A program made the position numbers and the translations under genes. Of a stretch of 64,000 bases of DNA, positions 11,806-59,300 are shown piece by piece (position 1 is the first letter of the stretch; each line of letters begins with the position of its first letter). The stretch lies in assembly GCA_009869945.1 (NCBI GenBank), contig WIXG01000038.1, forward strand, positions 283,115 through 347,114, written 5' to 3'. The notes under the pieces are model-generated. The model was not told the DNA's origin, ran no database searches, and saw only the letters and a program-made list of their open reading frames with translations. The stretch comes from Mesaphorura yosii. Lineage: Eukaryota > Arthropoda > Collembola > Poduromorpha > Tullbergiidae.

Positions 11806-12644
11806 TGTCACGAGAGGATTGTGAGGATTCATACTGGCGAGAAGCCTCATCTGTGCACATAGTGCCCGGCCACTTTCACCTCTCACGTTATCCATGATTG
11901 TTCTTTTTCTTACGGATTCATAATTTGCAGAGCATGAATTTTGAACCCTGAATCCTGATACAAGATGACGAAGACCATCGCTATGGTTGAACAGCATTCT
12001 ACAATTCTACCAGTTTTCTGGAAGTGCTTGCTTCTACAACTGCTGGTAGGAAGCCCCTCAAAACCTCGAACATGCCCGCTCTGCAACAAGATGCCATCAG
12101 GATGGGCCAATGCGGTGCAGCACTGCAGCCGCAAACACAAAGAGGAATGCGACCTGACGGCAATGAAGGCTCGTCGGGCGGGGGCGAAAGTTCTGATACA
12201 CGAGCAATCAGCCCCTCCCATTCCTCAATCTGATGCACCAACGGAGGACAATCCTGCAACACCAGCATCTCGTGCAGCGTCAACCATCGATTAGGCCAAG
12301 AATCTTTGGACTTGGAAAAAGAAGGCAATCATTGTCCACGCCTTCGTGAAACTTGAGCCCCACAAATGCCCGTACTGTGACAAGATACTTTCAAGTCGGA
12401 CCAATGTGGTACAACACTAATTCTCCCTGATTTCGGTAAGCGAGAATCGGTTGAATTGAAGATGATATGACGGTAGTGTGCACGTTTTCTTATGGTTGTT
12501 TATGTTTGTAATTTGCAGATCCTGATCCCCGAGTCATTGACTCCACAGATGCTGGTCGCTAGTCCTCAAAGTTGCACATAGCCCATTCTAGGACAAGGTG
12601 CTTCAAGTTGGGCCAATCTGGTGCAGCACAGCAGACATCAACAC
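11806..12644 (+). pseudogene. Decayed C2H2 zinc-finger gene (four finger remnants)
   Basis: Four plus-strand relics of C2H2 fingers occur in order. The first (11806-11892) has CHERIVRIHTGEKPHLC, which contains the Krueppel-type linker TGEKP, then a TAG at 11860-11862 between its two Cys. The second (12073-12138) keeps a full C-x2-C-x12-H-x4-H pattern (CPLCNKMPSGWANAVQH). The third (12367-12417) has CPYCDKILSSRTNVVQH, followed at once by TAA where the second His region should be. The fourth (12573-12644) has CT-stop and an indel, then SWANLVQHSRHQH. Similar TAATTTGCAG acceptor signals precede copies near 11,930 and 12,520, each followed by ATCCTGAT, so exon-intron units seem to have been duplicated. 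Stops at 12293-12295 and 12418-12420 prevent one long protein. A short expressed fragment holding only the second finger remains possible. Confidence 0.75.
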
Positions 12645-12911
12645 AACGATGACTACAATATATCATCGGGGCGCTTATTGGAAAGGTAGGCACGCCGTTA
12701 AAGGCTGCAACTGAATGAGGTCTGCACCAAAATAGCCAGACACCAAATTCCATTAAAGATACATGAGATATGAGCAGAAGCAGTGTAATTGTATTAATAT
12801 ATAAATAGTTTAGATTACGGGATTTTGCTTCATTCACTCACGTTCGTTCTTGGGCATTGGACGCATTCAGATCTTCACATCAATACAATACAGTCAAGTG
12901 TCCGAGCCAAG

Positions 12912-15082
12912 ATGGATTTCTTTCAGGCAGACCAGTTGCTGGCGCCTGTCACTTACGCCATTCCAACACTGGCCTGTTTGTTCTCAACACTGACGAGCAG
13001 GGACGGGGCACGCCAATACGACGGGTGGGTGAATACTATAATGCCAAATTAGCCACTTTGCTTACTGATTTCTTACAAAATTGAATTTCAGTTACCAAGT
13101 ATTTCGTGTCAATATAACAAATGAACCTGCAGTGGACACGCTGACAAGGCTTTTCTTAAATGACAACTTTGACTTTTGGATTCGACCCAACATGAGAACC
13201 CCAACTGACATCATGGTCTGTCCCGAACAAGTGGAAAACTTCAAGCTTATACTCGGACTTGTTGGTGTTCCTTACGAAATTATGATAAAGGACTTGAAAA
13301 GGTAACTTAGGTAGCCAGTGATCACATCAATTTCTTTTCATATGTGCTCTAAAATAAGAATCTTACCTCGTAGGACTATTGATAAAGAAAAGGTCATGCT
13401 GTGGACAAAGCAATCAAACACCTTCAATTGGGACACTTATCATCGACTGGACATTATCCAGGAATGGATGGACGGGCTGGCTGCTGAGAATCCGTCCCTC
13501 GTTACCGTTTTGTCAATCGGCAAGAGCGGCGAAGGACGCGATATGAAGTTGCTGAAAATTTCCTCAGGAGGCGAAAACAAGCAAGCTATATGGATTGACG
13601 GTGGTATGTATAATGCATTGAAAATGAGTAATAATCTGCTTGAAGTCTGCATGCGTTGACTTTCAACTTTGTGTGCCAGGAATTCATGCGAGAGAATGGA
13701 TTTCTCCGGCGGTGGTTACGTTCATAGCCAACGAGTTGGTTAAGCGAGCCTCCAAGAGAGCTGACTATCCACTCACCCAATACTTTGACTGGTACATTCT
13801 TCCGAACGGAAATCCGGACGGATACGAATACTCCCATGCAATGGTAAATTTGTCACCAATTGTAGTTATAAGACTGCCCTGAGGAATTTTAGTCTAATCG
13901 GAATTCGCATTTTAGGATCGGATGTGGCGAAAGACGAGGTCGACGCAGGATACCTTCATTTCAAACTTATTCCGATGCAAGGTAAGCAAAAGCTGCAAAG
14001 GCAGCTCACCCTAATGACGTGCTAATGATTTTCAGGGAACGGATCCAAACCGGAACTTTGCCTACAAGTGGGGAGGTAATTTAATGAAACAGGATACTAA
14101 CGATAAATAATTCAGGCGAGTACTCACTCAAAAATTGCTTTCAGGGAAAGGAACATCGAACAATCCGTGCTCGGATATTTACAGGTACAGAATAGAGCTG
14201 CGGAGCATGGGCACGTTAATTAATTCTCGTGGCATGAATGCAAACGACGAATTTTATCAGAGGTCCTTCACCAGCCAGCGAGCCTGAAATTTCCAGTGTT
14301 CAGAAGTTCGTGTACGACAAAAAAGATATCTTTAAGTTGTTTTTAACATTCCACAGCTATTCCCAGGTAATTAGAATATTTCCAGCTGCAGAGAATTTGA
14401 GGGTTTACGAACTTACAAGGCCAAAATGTGATGCATTCCAGATGCTGTTCCTGCCTTGGGGTTATGATAATATTCGAGTGGACGATTATGACGACCTTGT
14501 AAGTCGGCATAAATGCAATCAAATTATGGAAATCAGTGCCCGAAGATTTGACTTACTTTTCCTTTGGTATTCGTTTTCGCAGATGGCCGTAGCAAACAAA
14601 GCAGCCAAAGCACTGGAGAGCGTGTATGGAACGAAATTTGACGTCGGACCTTCACCCGAGTTACTGTGTAATTGCATGCATGCCTTCATTGCCTTCTGTT
14701 TTATTCTGGAAAACGAGACATCTTGGTTAGCAAGGTTTTTGTTCTGCTTCTGCAAATTATAGACGCTGCTGCCGGAGGAAGTGAAGATTTCGCAAAGGGA
14801 GTTGCTGGAATTAAATATTCGTACTGCTTTGAACTGAGAGACACTGGAAACTACGGGTTCATCTTGCCACCAGAACAAATTAAGCCATCGGGTATGGGCG
14901 ATAGAAATATATGACAGGTCAGGATTTGCCTTAAACCGCATTAAAATATTGCAGGCGTCGAAACGTTTGCGGCAGTGGAGTCAATGGCAGAGGATATGAT
15001 TGTTATTTATAAGCTGAACGAAACATCTACAGAACCATCGACAACTGTCAGCGACAGCAAGAAGTATCGTCATCGTGGATAA
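12912..15082 (+). CDS. Secreted zinc procarboxypeptidase, M14A family, predicted B-like (12 exons, complete)
   Basis: Exons: 12912-13024, 13092-13301, 13374-13600, 13680-13843, 13916-13981, 14036-14075, 14145-14184, 14261-14366, 14442-14498, 14583-14667, 14763-14891, 14955-15082. Phases agree and give 1,365 nt, or 454 aa. Order in the protein: hydrophobic leader (1 to about 32), activation propeptide (about 38-110, YQVFRVNI through [12 protein letters not shown]), then the catalytic domain. Zinc ligands are H186 and E189 ([10 protein letters not shown]) and H318 (FHSYSQ). R243 and R246 (WRKTR) and N265-R266 (DPNRNF) correspond to the substrate-binding arginines, Y370 to the down-swinging tyrosine and E393 (FELRDTG) to the catalytic glutamate. 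The residue at the specificity-pocket position (bovine 255) is E377, which suggests cleavage of C-terminal Lys/Arg. Known role of the family: stepwise removal of C-terminal residues after proteolytic activation, usually digestive. The start has a good Kozak context (CCAAGATGG); the exact leader cut site is uncertain. Confidence 0.95.
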
Positions 15083-15149
15083 TTCCCAGCTGCTAAGACT
15101 AAATATATTGATGCAGCTGAAGAACTCATATGGAAAGTTCATTAAATTG

Positions 15150-15155
15150 AATAAA
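15150..15155 (+). terminator. Polyadenylation signal of the carboxypeptidase gene
   Basis: A canonical AATAAA lies 68 nt past the stop codon on the coding strand, a normal distance for a compact 3' UTR. Confidence 0.65.
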
Positions 15156-15199
15156 AGAGTTGCACTTAAAATAGTTTCATTTCATGAGTGTCCGCCCGA

Positions 15200-15320
15200 T
15201 GGACATGACGAGGAAGGTCACGCGGTTGATCCTGGCGTACAAATGTTTCGGAAATGTCGGAGCAATAGTGCACAAACTGGCTCGAATGAAAGGTATCATC
15301 ACAAATCTCATTGTTCGTGA
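15200..15320 (-). pseudogene. Duplicated fragment of the bestrophin last exon
   Basis: The stretch aligns with 16,186-16,316 inside bestrophin exon 10, with conserved blocks such as TGGACATGACGAGGA, GGTTGATCCTGG and CATTGTTCGTGA. On the minus strand it reads VTNNEICDDTFHSSQF and RQDQPRD, against [16 protein letters not shown] and LQDQPRG in the real exon. It has no promoter or splice context and lies downstream of the real bestrophin stop, so it is best seen as a non-functional duplicate. Point changes and an overall 10-bp length difference show it is not recent. Confidence 0.85.
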
Positions 15321-15327
15321 CTGACAA

Positions 15328-15415
15328 TATCGTCATCGTGAATAATTCCCAGCAAAACCATCCGAAAATATGTTCATGCAGCAGAAGTATGAGTTCATAA
15401 GGAAAGTACTTTGTA
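15328..15415 (+). pseudogene. Duplicated fragment of the carboxypeptidase 3' end
   Basis: TATCGTCATCGTG followed by AATAATTCCCAGC repeats the last codons, stop and early 3' UTR of the carboxypeptidase (from 15,065). Similarity continues through ATGCAGC, GTATGAGTTCATA and GGAAAGT to about 15,415. It directly abuts the bestrophin fragment at 15,200-15,320. Together the two mark the junction of a tandem duplication. Confidence 0.8.
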
Positions 15416-15762
15416 TTAAAAAAGACGCTAAATGTTAAATCATACTGAATTAAACTTGGAGTTCGATCATTCCTGAATTTCCTGTGGGAGCAGTAAAAGC
15501 TTTGATAAGGGTGAATGCCACACTTTCTCTTTCGGCACAATACCGGTGTGCCGTGGAATTATCAAGGCTGTTGCAAATATTTGTGTTTCAGCAAATAAGG
15601 GGGCGCCCGAAGTCTGAAGTCCCAATGGAGTCCTTATGTACTCTAACCCGAATCATGGTCAAGTAAAGCACATGCTCCATTACTAAAAATTCAAATAGAT
15701 TGTCTGATAGTAGGACTGCGTTCTAGTGAGCATGAAGCGGATTTATGTAATGCATCGGGTTG

Positions 15763-15768
15763 TTTATT
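15763..15768 (-). terminator. Polyadenylation signal of the bestrophin gene
   Basis: The plus-strand tttatt is AATAAA on the minus strand, about 70 nt past the bestrophin stop codon. Confidence 0.6.
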
Positions 15769-15837
15769 AAAAGATTAAAATGTAGAATCACATTAGGACA
15801 CAAGTTCCCATTCCTTAAAGGCAAACGAGATCCCTGC

Positions 15838-18800
15838 TTAACAGTTACTTTCTTTACTGATATCATTGAGCAAATGTTGTTCCGTGATTGATTCGTCCTT
15901 GTCACTGCCACCGAATCCAAGAGTCTTGGCCACTCTCGTTCCAATCCCGTCTTTTGATTTCTTCCCCAACGATTCTTCTGGAGTGTCATCTGAGTCTGAT
16001 TGGTTTAGGAGAAAAGCAGAATGTTCCCCCGTTTCTCTGTTTGCCGAGCTCTCAGCTAAAATTGTCTGAAAAGGGAAACTATCAGACACAGAAGCGTCTG
16101 ACGGGCTCAGGTCAAAAAGCAGGCTTAGCGACGAGGAAGTCGGAAAACTTATTTTTACTGGCAATGATCTGTCAGGCAGCACAGCTGGACATGACGAGGA
16201 AAGCTGGGCGCTTCCACGTGGTTGATCCTGGAGCACAAGTGTGTCGGAGTCGTCGGAGAAAGAGCGCACAATCTGTTTCGGCTGAAAGCTATCATCGCTC
16301 TTCTCATTGTTCGTGATTGGGCCTCCACCGAAAATGTCCTGAACGGTTGGTTTTTTCTTCTCCCCACGCGTGGAGACAATCGTTGTCATATTCTCATCCA
16401 GTTCAGGGATCACATCATCCAGAATATTCCTGTTCACGTTGATAACGCTCCCGTACACGTCTCCCGTGCGTCCTGAGGAAGGAAACATTTGAAATCAATA
16501 GCCTGACCTTCGCACAAAAGATGAGACTATTAAATCCATCCTTAGCATAATGGCTGATTGGATTGGCTGCCTTGTTCACGGACAATACCTACTTAATATA
16601 TAATAATACTCAAAGTTAAGTTGCTGTCGAACTTTCACCATACATCATTTTGATTTTCAAAGTTCAAGGAGACGAATTAGCGAAATGCGAATGCAATTGC
16701 TCGATGTCGCGAGTCTGTTTAGCAGCTTTGCGGATTACTTATTGCCAGAATTCGAATTAAATCTACTTTGAGTTCAAAGTCACAACAAGACTAATTCGAA
16801 TAATGCTGAACCCACAAAGCAACAGATACAAAGCGAACAGGAAAAGTCACGACCACTGACTGTCTGCTTCTCTAAGCACATTAAAAGCAAGTATTATAAT
16901 AAATATATTTTGCGAGCTTTGAGTTTTGCATTACTTAAATTGCAGACCTTCAAAGAAAAATGAGTCGTCTTTGTGGCAAAAAGTGAAGGCGAAATTTTCC
17001 GGGAATTATTTAATCCAAGAGAATATTCCACGCTCGTGTTACCAAAGCTTTCGATTAAATAACATTTCTTGGAATTTCACGCTCCCATAAAACCGACTGC
17101 TTAAATCTGAGCCGCGTGACGCCTGCAGTGAACGCAGCAAGATTCAAAATAGTTTGTCCTCAAAGAATACATACGACAAATTATGCGACGATTTTAGTTG
17201 CAGTATTTACATTTTAAGGATTTTTGCATACCCTTACACTTTAAATATGCGTGTGTTCGTATCTCTGTGTGTCCAAATTCGTCAAACGAGGACAAGACAC
17301 CAAATCTTAATTTAGGCAAGTCAAGGTTGTCATTTGCATAATTTATATTCAGTGATTCGACCGAAAAGCTAATTAACACGATCTGATCGGAAAGTCAAAC
17401 AAAACAAGAAATCATGGTTGCTAATTTCCGTTTCCCGGTTTAAAAGCTGGCTGGTCGTATAACATTTTGGAAAGAAATGTCGTAAATGAAAACTGAAAAC
17501 CAAATTCTAAGAAATAGAAATGCAAATATAAGAAGCCCCTGAATCCTGAAGAATTTCAATTTGAAATTATGCTGCGCTATTTCTTGAGAAAAACTTTTAT
17601 TTGCGTCTATGAAAATTTCCAAGAAACCTTCGTCTTAAAGCGTCAGACAAGTTTTGATTACTTTGGTGCTGGGCATGACGTTTAACCAGAAGGAAGGCAT
17701 TTGAGGCTGAGATTCAGTTTTAGGGCACTTCATTATTTTGCCACAGTCATGAAGGCTTTGAAGATGTAAGGAACTTTTTGACTGACTTGTTGAAGCCCAG
17801 TGGTTGAACGCACTTTATTTCCCGGAAATATTTTAAAACAAAGTTCCAAGATGCCAGGTTGTGGTCGAGACTGCCATTGAACTTCCTCGTATCCCGGGCT
17901 TAAACCTGATTAACTTCTCCTTGTGAGGACAATCGAGAGAAACTTATGAATGAAGCATTCTCACCGAATTCTTGAGTCTGAGCTCGGTCTGCTTGCTAAA
18001 GCGAAACTTCTAGCACATGCTCTACATTCATTCTTCACTTTGTTCATGAACGTGAAAATGAAATTGGAACATTTGCCTCAGTGGTTTTTATCTACCAAGT
18101 TAAATATATGGAAAACCGAAACAGAACGCAGACCGCGTAAGGAAAGTGAATAACGAATTGAAATAGAGTAAATCGAACAATGATCTAATATATAAACATT
18201 CTTTTCAAGAATGTAGCCAAGCCAAACAAAGCTAACAGATGAGGATTCTGCCAGAATTTGCAATACAGGCCAGATCAGGTCAAGCAAACGCTGTGTATCT
18301 GATTCCAGTGAAAGGCTACATTGCATTGCATTGCAAGACGATCAATTAATGACACTTTCATTTCTCACACGAGTGCCGTTGATGCTGTGCGGGAAGGAAA
18401 TTCAGGAATCCAAATATAAATAAGAATACAAATACCACAGGAATGGTGATCTCGTGACTTTGGCTTGCGAATCAGTTCATACAGCACAATGAGCACGGGC
18501 AATTCCCTAACAAACGAACTTGCGTCAGGAAGGTTTGCTTCAGACCGCCCAACTTATCAATGTCACTGTAAATACGAGCGGCTGGAATCTGCTCGTGCAC
18601 GCAAACGAAGGAAATTGATAAGTACGAATAAAAGATACGAGAAATGGAGTCAAGTCAAGTCAGGTCCGAGGAGCATCTCGCCGACTCACCGTCTACGCTG
18701 AGGCAGCTGCCGCCGGTCTGCTCCGTGCCCCGTGAAAACATCCTCTTGAGCGCTGAACTGATGGAACTCGCCCGACTCATCTTGCCACTCGCGCTCTCGG

Positions 18801-21800
18801 CCAGCGTGCTCTGACTCGCGTTCGATTTCACACTCGCATTTCTCTCACGTGAAATGGACCCACTTCCTCTTGATTTGGACGGACTTCTTGAAGGCGGCTT
18901 CCCAATTTCCTGTGTGGAATAAAGAGCACGTGTTTAAATGAGAATAAAAGATTGCGGTAGTATTTTATTGCCCTCCCAGTTCACAATTCAAGCACGAAAG
19001 TTATCTGCTCTAAATTCATATTTCTAATCAAAGTGCACGGAAAGGAAGATTAAATTAACAATTCTAATGCGCCATTACTCGACGGAATCAAGGTTTCCAT
19101 ATCGAGACCTTATTGGCAAGCAGTGTTTCTGCACGTCATCCAATTACTTTCATGCAGAAATCTCATGCATGGTAAAATATTACACACGAAAGAAGAAAAA
19201 GTTTAAGGAGAAATTTGTAGTCTGTGAAAGTTTATTGCGTATGTAAAACTATGCAAATTATACATGGAAGCGATGCCTTTTGCCACGCCACACACTGTAA
19301 TCTGCAAACAGACACAGATTGACTTAGGGAGCCATGCTACTTGAGTTTTTGCGCTAAGAGTGCGACAGAGCATATAACACCGATTTTTAGCATGCTGAAA
19401 ACTGGAAGGCAGATGACTATGGAGCACAATCGGCGAGAGCGGGAGCGCAATCCGAATCACATTTCTATTTATTGCATTGCAGTGCAGTGTAGATATTCTG
19501 GAGAAGTCGAGTTCGGAGAAGGAAAGTCATTAATGAAAGTGTTGCGCCAACAACATAATAAAGTGCTTTCACCCTGAACTTTTTCTTTTGTGTTGTCGGA
19601 GTCTGACATTTGAATAATGAATGCATTTGCAAAGAATTCCCTTCCCGTGTTCTATATTTTGTGAGTAGTTGTGTTTTTGTTTGAGTTACAGAACGTGCAG
19701 GCATTCAATCTTGCAACTGGCAAGACCATTTACATAAAACTTGACACAACATTCGCATGCGGGCCAAGAAGTGCACCTCAATCTAAGCGGTGATCAGACT
19801 CACTTGTGATCCATGTCCGTCTAGCCTCGTCACGCAAGGTTTCATATAAATTACCTAGGAAAAGTTGTCCGAGTCAATTAGTGTCTGACCCAGAGAGAGA
19901 TAAAACTGAGAGATTACGCGGACCGACAACAAAGTAGACGAACGCTATTTTTGTGTTTAAATTTCAAAGCAAGTTCCCCTCAGAATTGCCCTTTCAATTT
20001 ATTTTCTATTTAGACACCGCGAAAGAGCCTACTGAAACTTAAAAATCTTGCTCGTGGTGGAGTTCAGAGAGAAAGTTGGAATTGGAAATAAAAAAGAAAC
20101 CATCTTCACCGTGTCGTCATAAGAATTACATCAGGGAATAATTACGCCGGGAAAGGCCGCCCAACTAAATTTAAAAGCCTTTCTTTCGCTCACAGAGAGA
20201 GAAAGTTGCAGTGAGTCGCATTCAAAGTGCAGAAAGTAAAATACCCCAGAATCAGACATTTCATCCAATTTGAGTGATGACGGTGCAATAATTTCGGCAT
20301 CATTCTTCGAGACTTGGATCTTGGCCGTGGAGTGAGTCGGAGGTTTATCTCTGTACTGTTCTGAGCCGATTGTATACGGAAGTTCCTGCGGGAACACTTC
20401 GTCCCAATATTGGTCCTTCAGCAGCTCCGGATGCTCGTGATGCATCTCGTCCACAATCAAGTACGATACCTGGAATATAATAACATGACGGCATACGGCA
20501 TATTACAATAATTTCATGTTTCATGTTACGAAATAAGAACGCGTGGATTGTAGATAATCTCCAGCATATATCTGAAGCTGTACTCGGGAGCCGTTCTTGA
20601 ATAATAGCAATGACCCGACCGGCCTTGAATCGAATGTTTGCAATTCAATGCCCTCAAACCATGTGAATGCGTCAAATATTCACAACCAACATGGAAACCT
20701 GATGCTCAAATTTTACATTCCAGACGGGAAAACATTAATTAAACATGATGCAGGTTTGAGGTTTTGGTTTTCCAAGTTCTGTTTTGGATTTAATATGTAT
20801 ATAATTACTCGTGTATGTAAATAAGAGCAAAAAGGAATGAAAATGACTTCGTTTAAAGAGAAAACTTTCGTCTGTCTGCTCGAATAATTACATTCATGAA
20901 TAAGAATTCTACTTGCTACACTGCGCCAATAGCACGTTGTTACGCTGTAATTTAAAGGCGCAGCCAACTTTCTCCGGATTCAGTCGCTCAAAGAATGGTG
21001 TCAACTTAATTTACGAAAACACGAGTCACTCGTGTTGCTAAAAAATCAAATAAGACAAAGCTTGGACCTGCCTGCGCGCTGTGCCTGTGCCCAAGACACG
21101 CAGAGTCAGAACGAGCACGAACTCACTAACACTCGAACCGGGAAGACCTCGGGAGACGAGTTGTAACTTGTAACCAACGCAAAACTTTTTCAATATTTGT
21201 TTAATGTGAAAGTAGAAGGAACAGTTGCTTAAAAGCTGGTGAGCAGTGAAGAAAAACGAAAACGAAGAGAGAGTCCGCTGAGTTTGCGATTCGTCCTTGG
21301 AGAATTCAGCTATTCTCCTTTTCTTGTTTCCAATTGCATTCAACGAATGTCAACGTCATGCCAACCGTCATTAGCCGAAAAGTACTACCGGCCTTTGACG
21401 AAAGACACGTGGTTAATTTGAGAGAAGAGCGCTTTGTAATTTGCGCATGTATCGCATGCTTTTTATGTCTGAAGTCTCCAGAAGTTCCCGGCCATTTACA
21501 CATTCTTTGAGAGCTGAACACTTTTTAAGAACTTTCAAACTGTGGGTGCTGAACTTGGACGTATTTCGATGAATCGTTGACGCAAGTCGTCGTCAGTCCA
21601 ACTTTTAAAGGGAAGCAGAAGCAGCTTACCTGCAAATTTCTGTCTACTATCCAATTGAGTTCAAAGTCATCATCGTCATCACCAAACGGATTCAGGAGCG
21701 ATTCTGCAACCTTTAGCCATCCCATGTAGAAGAAAAACTATCAAAAAGAAGAGCCGACACTAAAATTAAACTCGTAATTACTGCGCGTGTAATTAATTAG

Positions 21801-24800
21801 TGAAAGTAAAGTCTGAGCCAGTGTGTGTAAAAAGGCTCGGTTCATTGCAGCAGAATCTCAAGCATCGAAACACGTGCCACCAAATTTACGAGTTACGTTC
21901 TTTCAGCTCAGATTAAGGATGATTAAAGCTATTAAAAGGCAACAGGCACTTCGGGTGACCATAAAACCCTACTTCAAGAATCTGTTACGACTTCATAGTT
22001 TCATAATAAAAGGAAGTCTGTTCTGCTCTGCTTTTTGTGAGAAAGAAAAATTCTAATTTTTAACCATCCTGTACCCAGACGGGGCTAGGCTCCTTCCTGA
22101 GAAATTTTGCTGGTAGTTTTCGGCCAAAGCCCAAAACAATTTGGGCTTTAGAGGAGTTCACCGGAAAGGTAAATTGAGTCACCTTATCTCGAGCACGTAT
22201 AGGAAAAAGGTGGTTAAACCTTGTATGAAATTTTAATACACGTAAGTATTTCTGAGTCCCTGTGCGTCTCTCTTCTCCATCACAATGTAGTGCAATGTTT
22301 GTTGAGTTGAGCGTATATTTTTGAACGAGCCATACGCTGAACTTGACAACTCAGTCGCTTTCGACAGTGCGGAGCGAGCGGGACAAGTGCCTGGGATGGG
22401 ATTTCGAAAGTCATTTGTACTAAGTGCAGAAGATCGATAAGTTTAGAAGAGCACTCAGGTGAAATTGAATGAGACACTATCTATAAATGGAATCTGTGTA
22501 CGGATCATTCGGTCACGTTAAAGAATTGGGATTAATCTAATTTCTTGTGAGGATCTTCCTCATACGCAGGAAGAAATTCAGGAAATGTACGCGGGGTTAC
22601 TGCGAGCAAATAGAATATAGAAGAAATACCCACTTGTAATGTTGTAAAAATTGGAAAAACCAAATCCAGGTCTGGAACTTTATTCTTCGCCACGGCGTTC
22701 GGATGAGCCGGGCTCAGCCACTGCCTCCCCATCACGCATGAAAGAAAATAAGAATAAACGGCCAGTGTTACAACCTGAAATCAAATCAAACTGTAAACTT
22801 TAAAATAGACAACAGCCTTCGTACTTGTTCCGGAAATTGGAGAAATGCGTACCAATATTAAAGCAGGACGTACACATACACAGATTTGCAGTACAGACGG
22901 ATTTACGCACGAATAATTGTTATTGTTTACTCAAGGAAAATGCGTTATCATTGATTGTGCGATCTCAACGGAGGTATAACGCACTTGTCAATAAATCCGC
23001 AGAAATTGAAAACTTGAACGCGTAAACAAGTTTTAAATTCTGCCTTTGGCACGTTCAACTTTAATGGAAACAAGCAAACGCAATCTGAGGGTTCGCAATT
23101 ACTCAAACAAATTCCGAAAGTATTTACTATTTACAGAGCTCGAGGAGTACGTTGAAAAGATTACTGGGTTAGTCACCTGGGTGTAAACGAGGGGAACGCT
23201 GATCCAGTCATAGCTGATGAGTAGACCGCAGCTGCCCCGAAATTTGTTCAGTTCGTCCAGCAGTGTCTTAACCGCAAAGTCGTCCCGAATCTTGCCCTCT
23301 TTCCGTGCGCGTGTCACAATGGAGGCTGCCCAGATGATTGGGAGCCATGTCTTTGAGTATCCGGGAACAGATTTGTTCAGAGTTTCAATCACCTTCTTCT
23401 CGTTTTCAAGCAGCAGACCTGTTTCGCATTCGTAAACAATTGAGCATGAGAGATGAGCGAAATACATATTAAAAGGTGTTGGAAAACACTTCTCATGTAC
23501 GAACGTAAACATGTTTGCTCAAATTACAATTTGTGAAGCTCAAATAAATAGCAGATCGATAAAAATTCCAATCACCCGCTAAGAGCATAGCTTTTATGCG
23601 CTTTTACCTGCTTCAATGAGATGATCCAAAGTTGAAAATCTCTTCTTCACACGAGCACTGATGAGAGTGAAGCACATGGTGAGTGAAAGACAACAGTAGC
23701 GCATGATGGTTCTTCGCATGAGTCTACTTTTCTCTTCCTGAAATTCCAAAGTATCCAAGGGCTGAGCACAAATCCAGCAGAAGCAAATGTCACGTCAGTG
23801 TGTAGCTCAACGATGCAGAAGAATTAAGCGAGTCTGCCGTTAATTTACTTGATCAAAAGAACAAAGAGAAATCGATTCCAGGAATCTCGCATTTTGATAA
23901 TGCCAGACTCGGTCGTGGAATTGAAGAATCATTTTGTGGTTATTTAGGGCCTCTTTTTGTTCAGAATTCAGACCACACGTCTTTTTAAGCGTGCTTACTG
24001 ATTTCGCTGGAAGCCGGGCAAATGGTTGGCTCAATTCATGAGAAAACACGGTTTTAAACGGGTTCCATTGAGCAGCTGACTAGCACTGTTAATTATTCAG
24101 CTTGCCTAGCCGAATCACGTAGCCGTAGCTGGGCTGCTCATTTCCTTCTGCTCGTGCTTACCTGCCCGTGGATGCTGGCACTGACAAAGACGGCGACGGG
24201 GTCTGGCCATGGAATTGCTTTGTATTGATCCCACCAGCGGCCGACCACAATCGAGACGTAAAAGCCCAAGACAAATGACACTGGAATCAATGTGCCATAG
24301 TTCTCGCAGTAGGTCGAGATTTGTTCAAACAGCCTGTGCAAAAAATATAATGCCACATAATCAAGAAAAATTTCCTTCACATGCGGCACATCGCACAAGA
24401 AATGTCGGCAGGTATGCTCGGCTTCCCGCCTCACGCTCACACAAAAGGGATGCTTCGCATGAAAGCATAAAAGACTTTTCAGGGACGAGAACGAATGTCG
24501 TTGGATTTGCTTTCTCCTGTCCTGATGTCAGGAAGGAACTCGTAGAATGTGTCAAGGAGTGTAATTTAGGGCGACAAATGTATCAATTCAATATTGTGGA
24601 GGCTAGAAAAATATGTTCTGGTCGCATCGATGAAAAGAACTCAGTGCGCTTCTTCTTCAGTGTCATGGTGTACAGCATCACAGCAGCTCGAAGATTCAAT
24701 CCAAATTACACAACAGACCTGGCAGCGTCACGCGTATGCCTGTTTTGACTGTATACAAACAATAAGGCGTAACAGCAGTTGACAGAAACGTAGAATTTCA

Positions 24801-26216
24801 TAATATTGCTGCCCCACTTCTCATTTTGTCTGCTGGCACTGCGATCTATGTGATGCATGCTGGGACAGACGTCTTGCGATCTAAGCGTGCAGACTTCCCG
24901 ACCTTCACTGACTGAAACGAAGTTATCATTGCCATTGCCACCACCCTTTGCTTTTGCCTTTGCGGGCTTTACCCTTCGCAAACATATGGCGTACGATGTT
25001 TTCCGAATTTTTCAATGAATCGCTGAAAATTGAGTTTGTCACCCACGGCGTGGCTCGACACAGAAAGATGAGAAGGCAAAGGATTGACTTACTTTTGCTG
25101 TGACGGAGTCAGGAAGAAGCGGTACAGCGCGCTGAGAGCGAAGTATGTTCCGAGAAAGAGAAACAAGTCGGGCCACATCAGCTTGTAAATACTTCCTTTC
25201 CATCTGAAATCAATCAGAAAATATTAGATTAGAAACGTCTCGTATTTAAACTGCATTAAAACCGGCGACACGGCCTCATCATTTCGTTTCTGGTTTTCCC
25301 GTTCCTTGGACATTTTTGAAGTTTTGTGACGTCCTTCGAATTATACATTTGCTGGGTGAGCTTCATTTTTCCGGCAAAAATCAAATTCAGGCTCATTCAG
25401 GCTCAGATTTGGTTAGGTTAGGTTAGCAAATGCATGCGAGCCTGAGCCTGAATGAGCCTGAGCCTGACCCCAACAAGCAAATGTGTGCGAGCCTGAGCCC
25501 GAGCCTGAATTTGATGTTTGCCGGAAAAATGCAACTCACCCCATTTGCTTACCGAAAATTGGCAGTCTGACCTTCACTTTGCGTTATGTGAGTAAAGTTC
25601 ATTCAAATGTTGTCTTTCAGCGTTAATACTGCCAATACTCGCTGTTTTCGCATGAATGCCATAAAAAGTGTAGCATTTCACAAATGTAATCATGCGCAGT
25701 GTAAGAAAACAAAAGGTTTTCGGTCCGGATTTCAAGTAGCAACAACTTCTGTAAATTGAACGTACCCGAAAATCAGTATAATAAAATTGTTAGCACAAGT
25801 CCTAGTCTTGATGCTAGAATTTTCAACTTTTTTCTTTCAATCACCTTTGAAAAGGTCGATGAGTGGGTTGTATTTACTTTTAAGAGCATTAGAGTGGAGA
25901 AAAGAATGACTTTTTAATGAAGTCGATGGTAGAAGAAGTAACAAACACGAAAGTGAAGAACGATCGTAGACTCTCGTACGAAATTATAAGCGCATGACTT
26001 GATTAATGGGCAGAGGGGCAGGGAGCTGATGAATTAATGACTTTTGGTTAAACGAATTGTGGAGTGTCATCAAGCTAGTATTTCTAAAGACTTTGAACTG
26101 CAGAAAGTAGGAAAAATCCTTTTCGTCGAGATCAAAACAACTTACCGAAACAAAAGCTTCACGAAACAGCCGAAGCCCTTGCAGGTCGCGACCTCGGCCG
26201 TGTAGGTCACCGTCAT
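15838..26216 (-). CDS. Best: Bestrophin, calcium-activated chloride channel (10 exons, complete)
   Basis: Exons on the minus strand: 26216-26146, 25203-25093, 24333-24162, 23737-23608, 23418-23177, 22774-22634, 21737-21630, 20469-20245, 18909-18690, 16472-15838. Phases agree and give 2,055 nt, or 684 aa. The N-terminus MTVTYTAEV is typical of bestrophins. The channel neck [11 protein letters not shown] (I77, F81, F85 match human I76, F80, F84) leads into GRWWDQY and [17 protein letters not shown] and [12 protein letters not shown] are conserved, and an acidic run D309-D313 ([14 protein letters not shown]) matches the calcium clasp. [11 protein letters not shown] and VDEMH follow. Residues after about 400 form a divergent cytosolic tail: Ser/Arg-rich at 401-473, then acidic and Ser-rich to the end. 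Known role: pentameric plasma-membrane anion channel opened by cytosolic calcium. Length is similar to insect bestrophins and longer than human BEST1 (585 aa). Introns 1, 8 and 9 are the large ones (0.9-2.2 kb). An acceptor-like ATATAG near 26,295 hints at a split 5' UTR. Confidence 0.96.
22126..22149. repeat. Perfect 10-bp hairpin in a bestrophin intron
   Basis: AAAGCCCAAA and TTTGGGCTTT are exact reverse complements around a 4-nt loop. They lie in intron 6 of the bestrophin gene. Weakly matching outer sequences (TTTTTAACCATCC near 22,060 and GGTGGTTAAA near 22,210 on opposite strands) suggest the core of an old foldback element of about 160 bp, but this is not firm. Confidence 0.5.
25354..25541. 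mobile_element. 188-bp miniature inverted-repeat transposon with an 8-bp target duplication
   Basis: The element starts GGGTGAGCTTCATTTTTCC and ends in the near reverse complement. The outer 41 bp of the two arms (25354-25394 and 25501-25541) differ at only 3 positions. Identical 8-bp direct repeats CATTTGCT flank it exactly (25346-25353 and 25542-25549). The inside holds repeats of GAGCCTGA and three GGTTA units, and no coding capacity. An 8-bp target duplication is typical of hAT (and P-type) transposons, so it is probably a non-autonomous hAT-like element, though its ends lack the usual CAGGG start. It sits in intron 1 of the bestrophin gene. Confidence 0.88.
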
Positions 26217-56300: not shown

Positions 56301-59300
56301 CCTGAAAAGTAAAAGCTCTTTGATCGGGGTAGATTCCGGGAATTGTTTGGTCGCAGAATAAAAAATGAATCGAAAGCTTCCTTATTACACTAAAGAGCAT
56401 CCACTTAATTGCGCTTTCTCTAGAATCGTCCGCTGTCGCTTTTGGCGATTTTTGTTGACCTGACCTCGCGGCTCAACTTTTTTAACGTTGCGTGGATACT
56501 CGAACGTCGACCAGCCTATTTCGCAATTCGCAGACAGACGTTCACGTGCTCCTTACATGCAATGAATAAAAAAGTAAAATGCGCTCATTATTTTTTGTGA
56601 AACGAATTTCCTTTGAAATTACGAACAAAACTGAAAACCTGAGAAAAGCTGCGCGTTTGAATACAAGCCTAATTTAATCCGAGACGGCTTCAATGAACTA
56701 ATCCATCCGGAACAAATCTACCTAGTTGAAATCTACCTCAACAAATCTACCCGTGGAAATAATCTACCGAGTAATATTCTACCAAATTAAAAAAATCTAC
56801 CCCTTCAATAGGGTCGGTCAGCTTATACCAATGTGTCATTGGGGGAAACAGTGCAGGTCCACTAGCAGGCAAGTCTCTATTACGAACCCGGGGTAGGGAA
56901 CGAATACAGGATGGAAAAATATTCACATATGAAATACAAAATATGAGAATGCTCCTAGCACCCACTATCAATGTGAACAAAGTATTAATAAAACGGGTAG
57001 ATTTCTCGTGGGCAGATTTGTTCCTCGGTAGGTTTCAACCGGGTAGATTTGTTCCAGGTGGATTAGTGCCTGTAACGAGACGGCTCATTGTAACAGTGGC
57101 TCTTTTCCTTGTTAAAATCGTGCGTGTCCAAATTCTCCAAGATGATGAGTGAATTTTTACCGGCGCGTGGGCAATTATTTCCTTCTGATTTCACGTGTCA
57201 AATGATTTGTCGACCGTTAGTCGTTATCAATTCAAATTCCGAGAAGAGCACGCCGAACATACGAAAATACGACGAAAAAGCAGGAGACCATTAAAAAGAA
57301 GCAAATTCAAGATCCAATTGCCGTGTAATAAATATCAAATACATAAATAAAGTCATGAATACAGGCAAAAATAGTTATGGCTCATTAATTTTAAGACTAC
57401 CTCAGACTTGCTTTAAACTCGTATGGCAGACTGATAACGGCAAGCCCAAATGATTTGTGTATATATACGGATTTCGATGCTTTCAATTGCCGCCGTCTCA
57501 ATTTTCTCGTTTGCTCAGTGATAAACTCAAGTTTTCCTTCTCAATGCGTCGCCACTCCTTTCTGCGTTCCATTCCAAGCAAACTGAAGGCTGCAAAACGC
57601 AAGGCTGACCTTCACAACTTCGCGTTCGGGTAAGCTACGGCGTGGCCTACCCAAACGTTAACCCTTTTAGCTGATGATCTCCACGAAAGCAGCATGCACT
57701 GTAAAACTTTGCAAACTCATTCTAGCGAATGTAATGAGAACTCTCAGTGTACGGAAGAAGCAGAGAAGACATTAAACACTTTAGAAAAATAACTCACAGT
57801 TAGAGAAAGGCGAAAGAGATTAAGCGCGGATGAGTAAGCACAATGAGCTGGAGCAGAAACGTAATAATTTCACAGTTGCCAGCTGTCATTTACAAAATAA
57901 TAAAAACAATATATTATTACAATGCACTGCTACAATACTTCAGCAGTATTGCATAAGAAGCAGCCGCCGAGAAATAAAGTTTGTTCATCGGGTGCAATGT
58001 GAAAGACGAGAAGAAGTGTACGGATGAATAAAATTAACGCAGCCGAAACAAACTCCCGGCCGCCTTCTTTAAATAGAAGAAAGTTGTTCTCTCCTCACCG
58101 ACGAATGCGAATGCGGCGCGTGGCGGGCGCTTTGCTGGCAGGGGTTTGATCTGAGGAATGGGCCCGTTTTGTCATTGTCTCATTAACATGTTCGGATGTA
58201 CAGCATCAAGCGACAGAAATCTGAGTGAGCGCAAAATCGGCCCGGCATTCACAGAATTTGCTGCCTGCTGACGCTGTCGGAAGTTGATAGTTGATGCACT
58301 CGAAGGAAACAAGGAAAAATGAGACGAGAGCTTATACGAATCATTTTCATAATTGTATTATGAGACGCTAAAAATTCGCAGCCAGGAGCGGAGTGGAAAC
58401 CTTGAAGAAATCCGAGCGATGGGTTTCAATCCTCTCAACCGTAATTTCCGAAATTGTGCTTGGAGAAAAGTGACGGAGTGGCAAACACGTGACAGCAGTC
58501 CTTGCATCATCCTCCACAACCATCACAAATATTCTGCCCCTCGCTGCAATCGCACCCGGCCTCCTTGAACGATTTCAGCAATGCGGCGGCACTTTTTATC
58601 TGCTTATCAGGTGTCCGCATCGCTTCTCGCTCCGACAAACTAGTAATTCCGGCGCTGACAGTTTAAACCGATCGAAAGCATTGCTTTCGCATCTATTGAC
58701 CTTCCCAGCTATAAAATGCATTAAATGCAGGTGAAGTGAAACAGATTTCAATGAAATCTGAAAGATCAGTGAAAGGTTGCGAGATATGAGAAATGGAGTA
58801 AAATCGTTTGAAAAAATTGAAAAGGAAGAAAAATGGCAATATTTTGCGCGACCTTTCGCTGCGTGTGACACTAACTTTCATCTCCAAATATTATTATATA
58901 TCACTTTTGCAGACCGCTGAACATAAATTGCAAGTTCAGTTGTCCGTGAAAAGCGGAATGGAAAGAATAATACGCACGGGCAATGTATCTTGCGTGCTTG
59001 CTGGCTCGCTCCCGTCTTACGGCTGAGACACCAGTCTTTGTTCTATTTTCGTACCCAGAACCCGCATACTTTCTCTCGCACGGGAGAAAGTCCACTCCTC
59101 AAGTTCAGTCTTTAGTCTCTAGCACAAATCATTCGCAGACTAATTTAATACGGCAGCGAATTGACCTCTCAACAAACTACAGCGTGTCAGAACGTTATGA
59201 AGTGTGGTTCAAGAAACTAAATCTTGACATCAAATCTAATACGCCTTGTCTACACTGCGGCTTTCTTCTGATGCCCTACGGTTAAAGCCAGGGAATGGTA

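What the first reader, a model, noticed from the sequence alone, without database searches (positions are those of the whole stretch)
15065..16316. Tandem duplication scar at the meeting point of two convergent genes
Between the carboxypeptidase and bestrophin genes there is a degraded piece of bestrophin exon 10 (15,200-15,320, matching 16,186-16,316) followed at once by a degraded piece of the carboxypeptidase 3' end (15,328-15,415, matching 15,065-15,145). The order carboxypeptidase end, bestrophin fragment, carboxypeptidase end, bestrophin exon is what a tandem duplication of the region from about 15,065 to 16,316 would leave, after loss of roughly 0.85 kb from the first copy. Both genes survive intact because one undamaged copy of each end remains outermost. 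The fragment keeps an open reading frame, so its present 3' UTR role or antisense transcription is open.
Basis: seen in the sequence. Interest (0 to 1): 0.72.

Follow-up and report, generated by a model that had tools for sequence, protein, structure and literature searches.

The report
Decayed tandem duplication between convergent genes
In an animal genome, about one thousand bases covering the ends of two genes that face each other were apparently copied side by side, and one copy has since lost most of its length and decayed into remnants, an ordinary kind of genomic scar.

Summary
The bestrophin-like piece 15,200-15,323 matches the last bestrophin exon at 16,186-16,319 (74.6% gapped, 79% over 105 ungapped bases); the carboxypeptidase-like piece 15,328-15,423 matches that gene's 3' end at 15,065-15,154 (71%). 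None of 1,000 shuffles reached either score. The pieces abut with 4 nt between them, oriented like their parents, in the order a head-to-tail duplication predicts. A patchwork templated insertion remains a rival; the 45 nt that might have decided fit neither flank better than chance. I found no sign of function: substitutions are even over codon positions, a 34-codon open frame survives by chance 57% of the time, the cryptic splice acceptor scores poorly, and the pieces lie between the two genes' predicted poly(A) signals. No relatives were available, so age and ancestral state are untested. Duplication followed by deletion is described in Drosophila (PMC5460883, passages). Ordinary.

The parts
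14955..15082 (+). Last exon of the M14 carboxypeptidase gene, stop codon TAA at 15,080-15,082
   Evidence: Open to the stop; four upstream frames hit Pfam Peptidase_M14
15065..15154 (+). Copy 1 of the carboxypeptidase 3' end (last five codons, stop, 3' flank), the copy in use
   Evidence: 71% to 15,328-15,423
15150..15155 (+). AATAAA, putative poly(A) signal of the carboxypeptidase gene
   Evidence: Motif match; use inferred
15155..15199 (.). 45 nt between the two copy-1 pieces, where the internal deletion should lie; not assignable to either side
   Evidence: Two-piece score 5, reached by 162 of 392 random window 45-mers
15200..15323 (-). Copy 1 of part of the last bestrophin exon (decayed remnant)
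   Evidence: 74.6% to 16,186-16,319; differences by codon position 6/8/8 in the 105 ungapped nt
15324..15327 (.). Junction of the two copies (counterpart of 16,319 joined to counterpart of 15,065), 4 nt unassigned
   Evidence: Ends of the two alignments
15328..15423 (+). Copy 2 of the carboxypeptidase 3' end (decayed remnant; no AATAAA, an ATTAAA at 15,415-15,420)
15328..16319 (.). Copy 2 as a whole: the surviving, near-complete copy of the duplicated unit, 992 bp
   Evidence: Bounds
15763..15768 (-). AATAAA on the minus strand, putative poly(A) signal of bestrophin
   Evidence: Motif match; use inferred
15838..16472 (-). Last coding exon of bestrophin (number 10 if one exon lies upstream of those I found); joins in frame to the exon 18,690-18,909
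16186..16319 (-). Part of the last bestrophin exon that has the decayed second copy

Best explanation
A segment of about 0.99 kb, running from the last five codons of the carboxypeptidase gene to the middle of the last bestrophin exon, was duplicated head to tail. Because the genes converge and the segment held only their 3' ends, the outer copy of each end left each gene complete. The inner carboxypeptidase end and the inner bestrophin exon piece were redundant. Copy 1 then lost about 0.73 kb from its middle (bestrophin 3' end plus intergenic DNA), and the redundant pieces drifted to about 17-21% differences in aligned bases plus indels. Shown: the two similarities, their order, orientation and 4-nt junction, no codon-position bias in the fragment, no further copy found. 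Inferred: that duplication came first and deletion second, and that the remnants do nothing.
For: Neither score was reached in 1,000 shuffles. The end of the bestrophin piece (counterpart of 16,319) and the start of the carboxypeptidase piece (counterpart of 15,065) meet within 4 nt, in parental orientation and in the predicted order. The pieces have similar divergence: 24 mismatches in 124 aligned bases and 15 in 86. A search of the 93-Mb assembly with 15,040-15,840 lists only this locus and the bestrophin exon; the 26-nt block occurs only twice with up to 3 mismatches. Differences 6/8/8 by codon position, dN 0.26 vs dS 0.23. Duplication followed by secondary deletion is described in D. yakuba (PMC5460883, passages).
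Against: The 45 nt between the copy-1 pieces align to neither expected flank better than random, so the deletion junction is not seen. No relative or unduplicated allele was available. The first 26 nt of the carboxypeptidase copies are 96% alike, more than the rest. The dN and dS values rest on 22 differences (about 20 silent sites). In the D. yakuba example a fragment left by duplication plus deletion was upregulated, so such remnants are not always silent.
Confidence: 0.82

Rival explanations
1. A single break-repair event inserted two templated patches (about 124 nt of bestrophin exon and about 96 nt of carboxypeptidase end) into the intergenic DNA by template switching; a full 1-kb duplication never existed.
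For: Gives the same final order. The 45 nt that the duplication-deletion model should explain are unassigned. Templated insertions at breaks are known (PMC7202663, passages; there counted as insertions of at least 5 bp mapped within 40 bp of the breakpoints).
Against: Needs two patches both in parental orientation and in just the order and abutment that a duplication gives; the patches are longer and come from farther away than in the definition seen.
Confidence: 0.13
2. The bestrophin fragment is kept as an alternative last exon of bestrophin, spliced from the exon 18,690-18,909.
For: An AG stands at 15,322-15,321 on the minus strand, at the very start of the fragment, and the sequence behind it is in the phase of the true last exon; 34 codons are open in the bestrophin frame.
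Against: The acceptor scores -4.2, below the 12 local acceptors scored (leave-one-out -1.7 to 9.5), and 70% of 3,685 minus-strand AGs do as well or better. On the minus strand the nearest AATAAA beyond the fragment is at 14,705-14,700, inside the carboxypeptidase gene, with no ATTAAA before it. No third-position bias. An open frame survives 22 random substitutions in 57% of 20,000 simulations.
Confidence: 0.02
3. The second carboxypeptidase 3' end serves as a back-up poly(A) site or transcription stop between the convergent genes, or read-through over it makes RNA antisense to bestrophin.
For: An ATTAAA stands at 15,415-15,420 in copy 2, with another at 15,449-15,454; 25 of the first 26 nt are identical between copies.
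Against: Copy 2 has no AATAAA. The longest exact run shared by the bestrophin copies is 16 nt, shorter than a small interfering RNA of about 21 nt (recalled). By a hand estimate (no call), 26 nt with at most one difference has a chance of about 2% per place at this divergence, not compelling over the whole alignment.
Confidence: 0.03

Closest known systems
[quoted passage not shown]
   Same: Tandem duplication that ignores gene bounds, captures gene fragments, and is then shortened by a deletion
   Different: Those are young, segregating variants studied with reads and RNA; this one is old (17-21% differences in aligned bases plus indels) and seen in a single assembly
Templated insertions of polymerase theta-mediated end joining (PMC7202663, passages seen)
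   Same: Copied patches near a junction
   Different: Patches here are about 96 and 124 nt with sources up to 1 kb away; no junction microhomology could be shown
Ordinary tandem gene duplication (another pair seen in L009)
   Same: Head-to-tail copies of local DNA
   Different: Here no whole gene was copied, only two 3' ends

Membership tests
Partial tandem duplication with internal deletion | Two direct-orientation copies next to each other | tested here: met
   Direct repeats with spacings 996 and 263
Partial tandem duplication with internal deletion | A novel junction joining the right end of the unit to its left end | tested here: met
   15,323 (counterpart of 16,319) and 15,328 (counterpart of 15,065) are 4 nt apart
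Partial tandem duplication with internal deletion | Deletion junction inside copy 1 assignable to both flanks | tested here: inconclusive
   45 nt at 15,155-15,199 score no better than random
Partial tandem duplication with internal deletion | Unduplicated state in relatives | not testable with these tools
   The search tool states that G000 has no relatives here
Templated patch insertion | Patches copied into an otherwise unduplicated ancestor | not testable with these tools
   Needs a relative
Alternative terminal exon | Usable splice acceptor and coding constraint | tested here: not met
   Acceptor score -4.2, below 12 of 12 acceptors scored; codon positions 6/8/8
Dispersed repeat or transposon insertion | Further copies elsewhere in the genome | tested here: not met
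   Two places listed in 93 Mb at E<=0.1, both in this locus. The tool scores only its best candidates and did not list the known second carboxypeptidase match inside the query, so weak copies elsewhere could be missed; the 26-nt pattern was found twice only, both here

The most novel reading that the evidence does not exclude
The scar was kept because it is useful: the spare carboxypeptidase 3' end acts as a second stop for transcription between two convergent genes, so that a tandem duplication of a convergent 3' border built a double transcription barrier.
Probability: 0.03. Interest if true: 0.45.

Novelty: new member of a known kind. Interest (0 to 1): 0.14.

Why it matters
Mostly as a clean example of how a tandem duplication over a convergent gene border can be harmless, because each gene keeps its outer end, and of how such scars leave exon-like fragments that a gene finder may misread as exons or unknown genes. 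It settles no open question.

Tried and rejected
Rejected: dispersed repeat, alternative last exon, known structured RNA (no Rfam match in the window at the gathering threshold), joining of two alleles by the assembler (a fifth of the bases different, as many replacement as silent changes per site, and a 0.73-kb loss are not allele-like; inference). Tried without result: assigning the 45 nt between the pieces; a junction microhomology (read by eye, undecidable at this divergence); naming the organism (ribosomal RNA family search gave no answer; no COX1 match; no match to an 18S pattern). I take it as an animal, probably an arthropod, from recalled resemblance of the bestrophin to insect ones; this was not tested. 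The window has no tRNA call and one short tandem repeat, far away. Two bestrophin C-terminal frames gave no Pfam match; the gene's identity rests. Literature: searches, of which I saw the listings; passages only of PMC5460883, PMC4503668 and PMC7202663 (nothing was used from PMC4503668). No paper on this locus stood in those listings, but the species is unknown to me, so that says little. The base-rate sample was meant to be 40 stretches; 20 were granted (200 kb).

Full report
What is there. The window lies at G000:C38:283,115-347,114 of a 93-Mb assembly in 1,127 contigs. An M14 zinc carboxypeptidase gene runs on the plus strand and ends with a TAA at 15,080-15,082 (4 of the 4 carboxypeptidase frames given to Pfam hit Peptidase_M14; last exon open to its stop). 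A bestrophin gene runs on the minus strand: Pfam Bestrophin matches lie at C38:304,735-308,334, window 21,621-25,220. Its last coding exon is 15,838-16,472, which joins in frame to the exon 18,690-18,909; two frames from the gene's C-terminal part gave no Pfam match. The two genes converge.

The observation. BLAST of 14,000-17,500 against the window gives, besides the self match, two strong pairs: 15,200-15,323 with 16,186-16,319 (74.6% over 134 columns) and 15,065-15,154 with 15,328-15,423 (71% over 100 columns). The window-wide E-values are 3.5e-19 and 3.7e-6. Without gaps, 105 nt of the bestrophin pair are 79% alike, and the first 26 nt of the carboxypeptidase pair are 96% alike. Against 1,000 dinucleotide shuffles each, scores of 146 and 102 stand against maxima of 55 and 57. 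The refutation test named in the finding is therefore not triggered.

Anatomy. The bestrophin piece ends (counterpart of 16,319) 4 nt before the carboxypeptidase piece begins (counterpart of 15,065). Both are in the orientation of their parents. This is the junction that a head-to-tail duplication makes. The unit's length is read from the surviving copy, 15,328-16,319, 992 bp. Copy 1 now holds 15,065-15,323, 259 bp; 733 bp are missing net (spacing 996 minus 263), and the 12 best two-piece alignments place 696-728 bp in the gap. The 45 nt at 15,155-15,199 between the two pieces of copy 1 align to neither expected flank better than chance: score 5, reached by 162 of 392 random window 45-mers (8 of 400 draws fell in the locus and were dropped) and by 183 of 400 shuffles of the 45-mer itself. 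The deletion point itself is thus not visible.

Other copies. A search of the whole assembly with 15,040-15,840 lists two places, the locus itself and the bestrophin exon. That search scores only its best candidates and did not list the second carboxypeptidase match that lies inside the query, so weakly similar copies elsewhere could be missed. The 26-nt block is found twice with up to 3 mismatches, both here. The assembly has 27 bestrophin matches on seven contigs and 68 M14 matches; none of those places off contig C38 came up in the DNA search.

Is it functional? Over the 105-nt ungapped stretch the 22 differences fall 6, 8 and 8 on codon positions 1, 2 and 3, with dN 0.26 and dS 0.23. This fits an unconstrained fragment beside a loosely constrained protein tail, though 22 differences over about 20 silent and 82 replacement sites are few. 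The open frame of 34 codons survives 22 random substitutions in 57% of 20,000 simulations, and 11 in 76%, so it carries little weight. An AG at 15,322-15,321 stands at the start of the fragment in the right phase for splicing, but its acceptor score of -4.2 lies below the 12 local acceptors scored (13 were looked up; one was dropped because I had set its boundary one base off), and 70% of 3,685 minus-strand AGs score as well or better. Putative poly(A) signals are AATAAA at 15,150-15,155 (plus) and 15,763-15,768 (minus), so both redundant pieces lie between the two predicted transcript ends. Copy 2 has no AATAAA; ATTAAA stands at 15,415 and 15,449. The longest exact run shared by the bestrophin copies is 16 nt, short for RNA interference in trans. 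No RNA data were available.

How common. Cut into 10-kb tiles, the window (7 tiles, two of them overlapping) and 20 sampled stretches of the assembly gave local direct repeats of at least 60 columns at E<=1e-6 in 2 of 27 tiles: this locus and L009, where two gene-sized copies lie 2.57 kb apart. Such repeats are uncommon per 10 kb but not singular in this genome.

What is known. In Drosophila yakuba, among 1,116 tandem duplications, 1,004 captured genes or gene fragments; [quoted passage not shown] The present case is an older example of that kind at a convergent border. Templated patch insertion (PMC7202663, passages) is the main rival and cannot be excluded without a relative.

Verdict. Interest is low.

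Noticed in passing
window 25354-25541: A 188-nt near-palindrome (self inverted, 71%) with a short TAACC tandem stretch near its middle, upstream of a bestrophin exon and probably in an intron. It matches 12 other contigs, best piece per contig 76-96%, so it looks like a dispersed fold-back or MITE-like family; the TAACC units resemble the arthropod telomere repeat TTAGG (recalled).
   Followed up: partly
window 56697-57067: Inverted repeat with arms of 56 and 58 nt (83%). Between the arms, about 56,806-56,927, lies sequence with matches on 21 other contigs: a short dispersed repeat.
   Followed up: partly
window 12033-12652: Direct repeat of 111-114 nt, 71% (12,033-12,146 / 12,542-12,652); translations look like C2H2 zinc fingers by eye, so probably repeated protein modules.
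   Followed up: no
L009 164-3541: Two gene-sized direct copies 2.57 kb apart, 67-72% alike; translations look like alpha-amylase (motif recalled, no family search run).
   Followed up: no
G000 whole assembly: No COX1 match and no match to one generic 18S pattern with up to 2 mismatches: mitochondrial and ribosomal DNA may be absent from this assembly or withheld.
   Followed up: no
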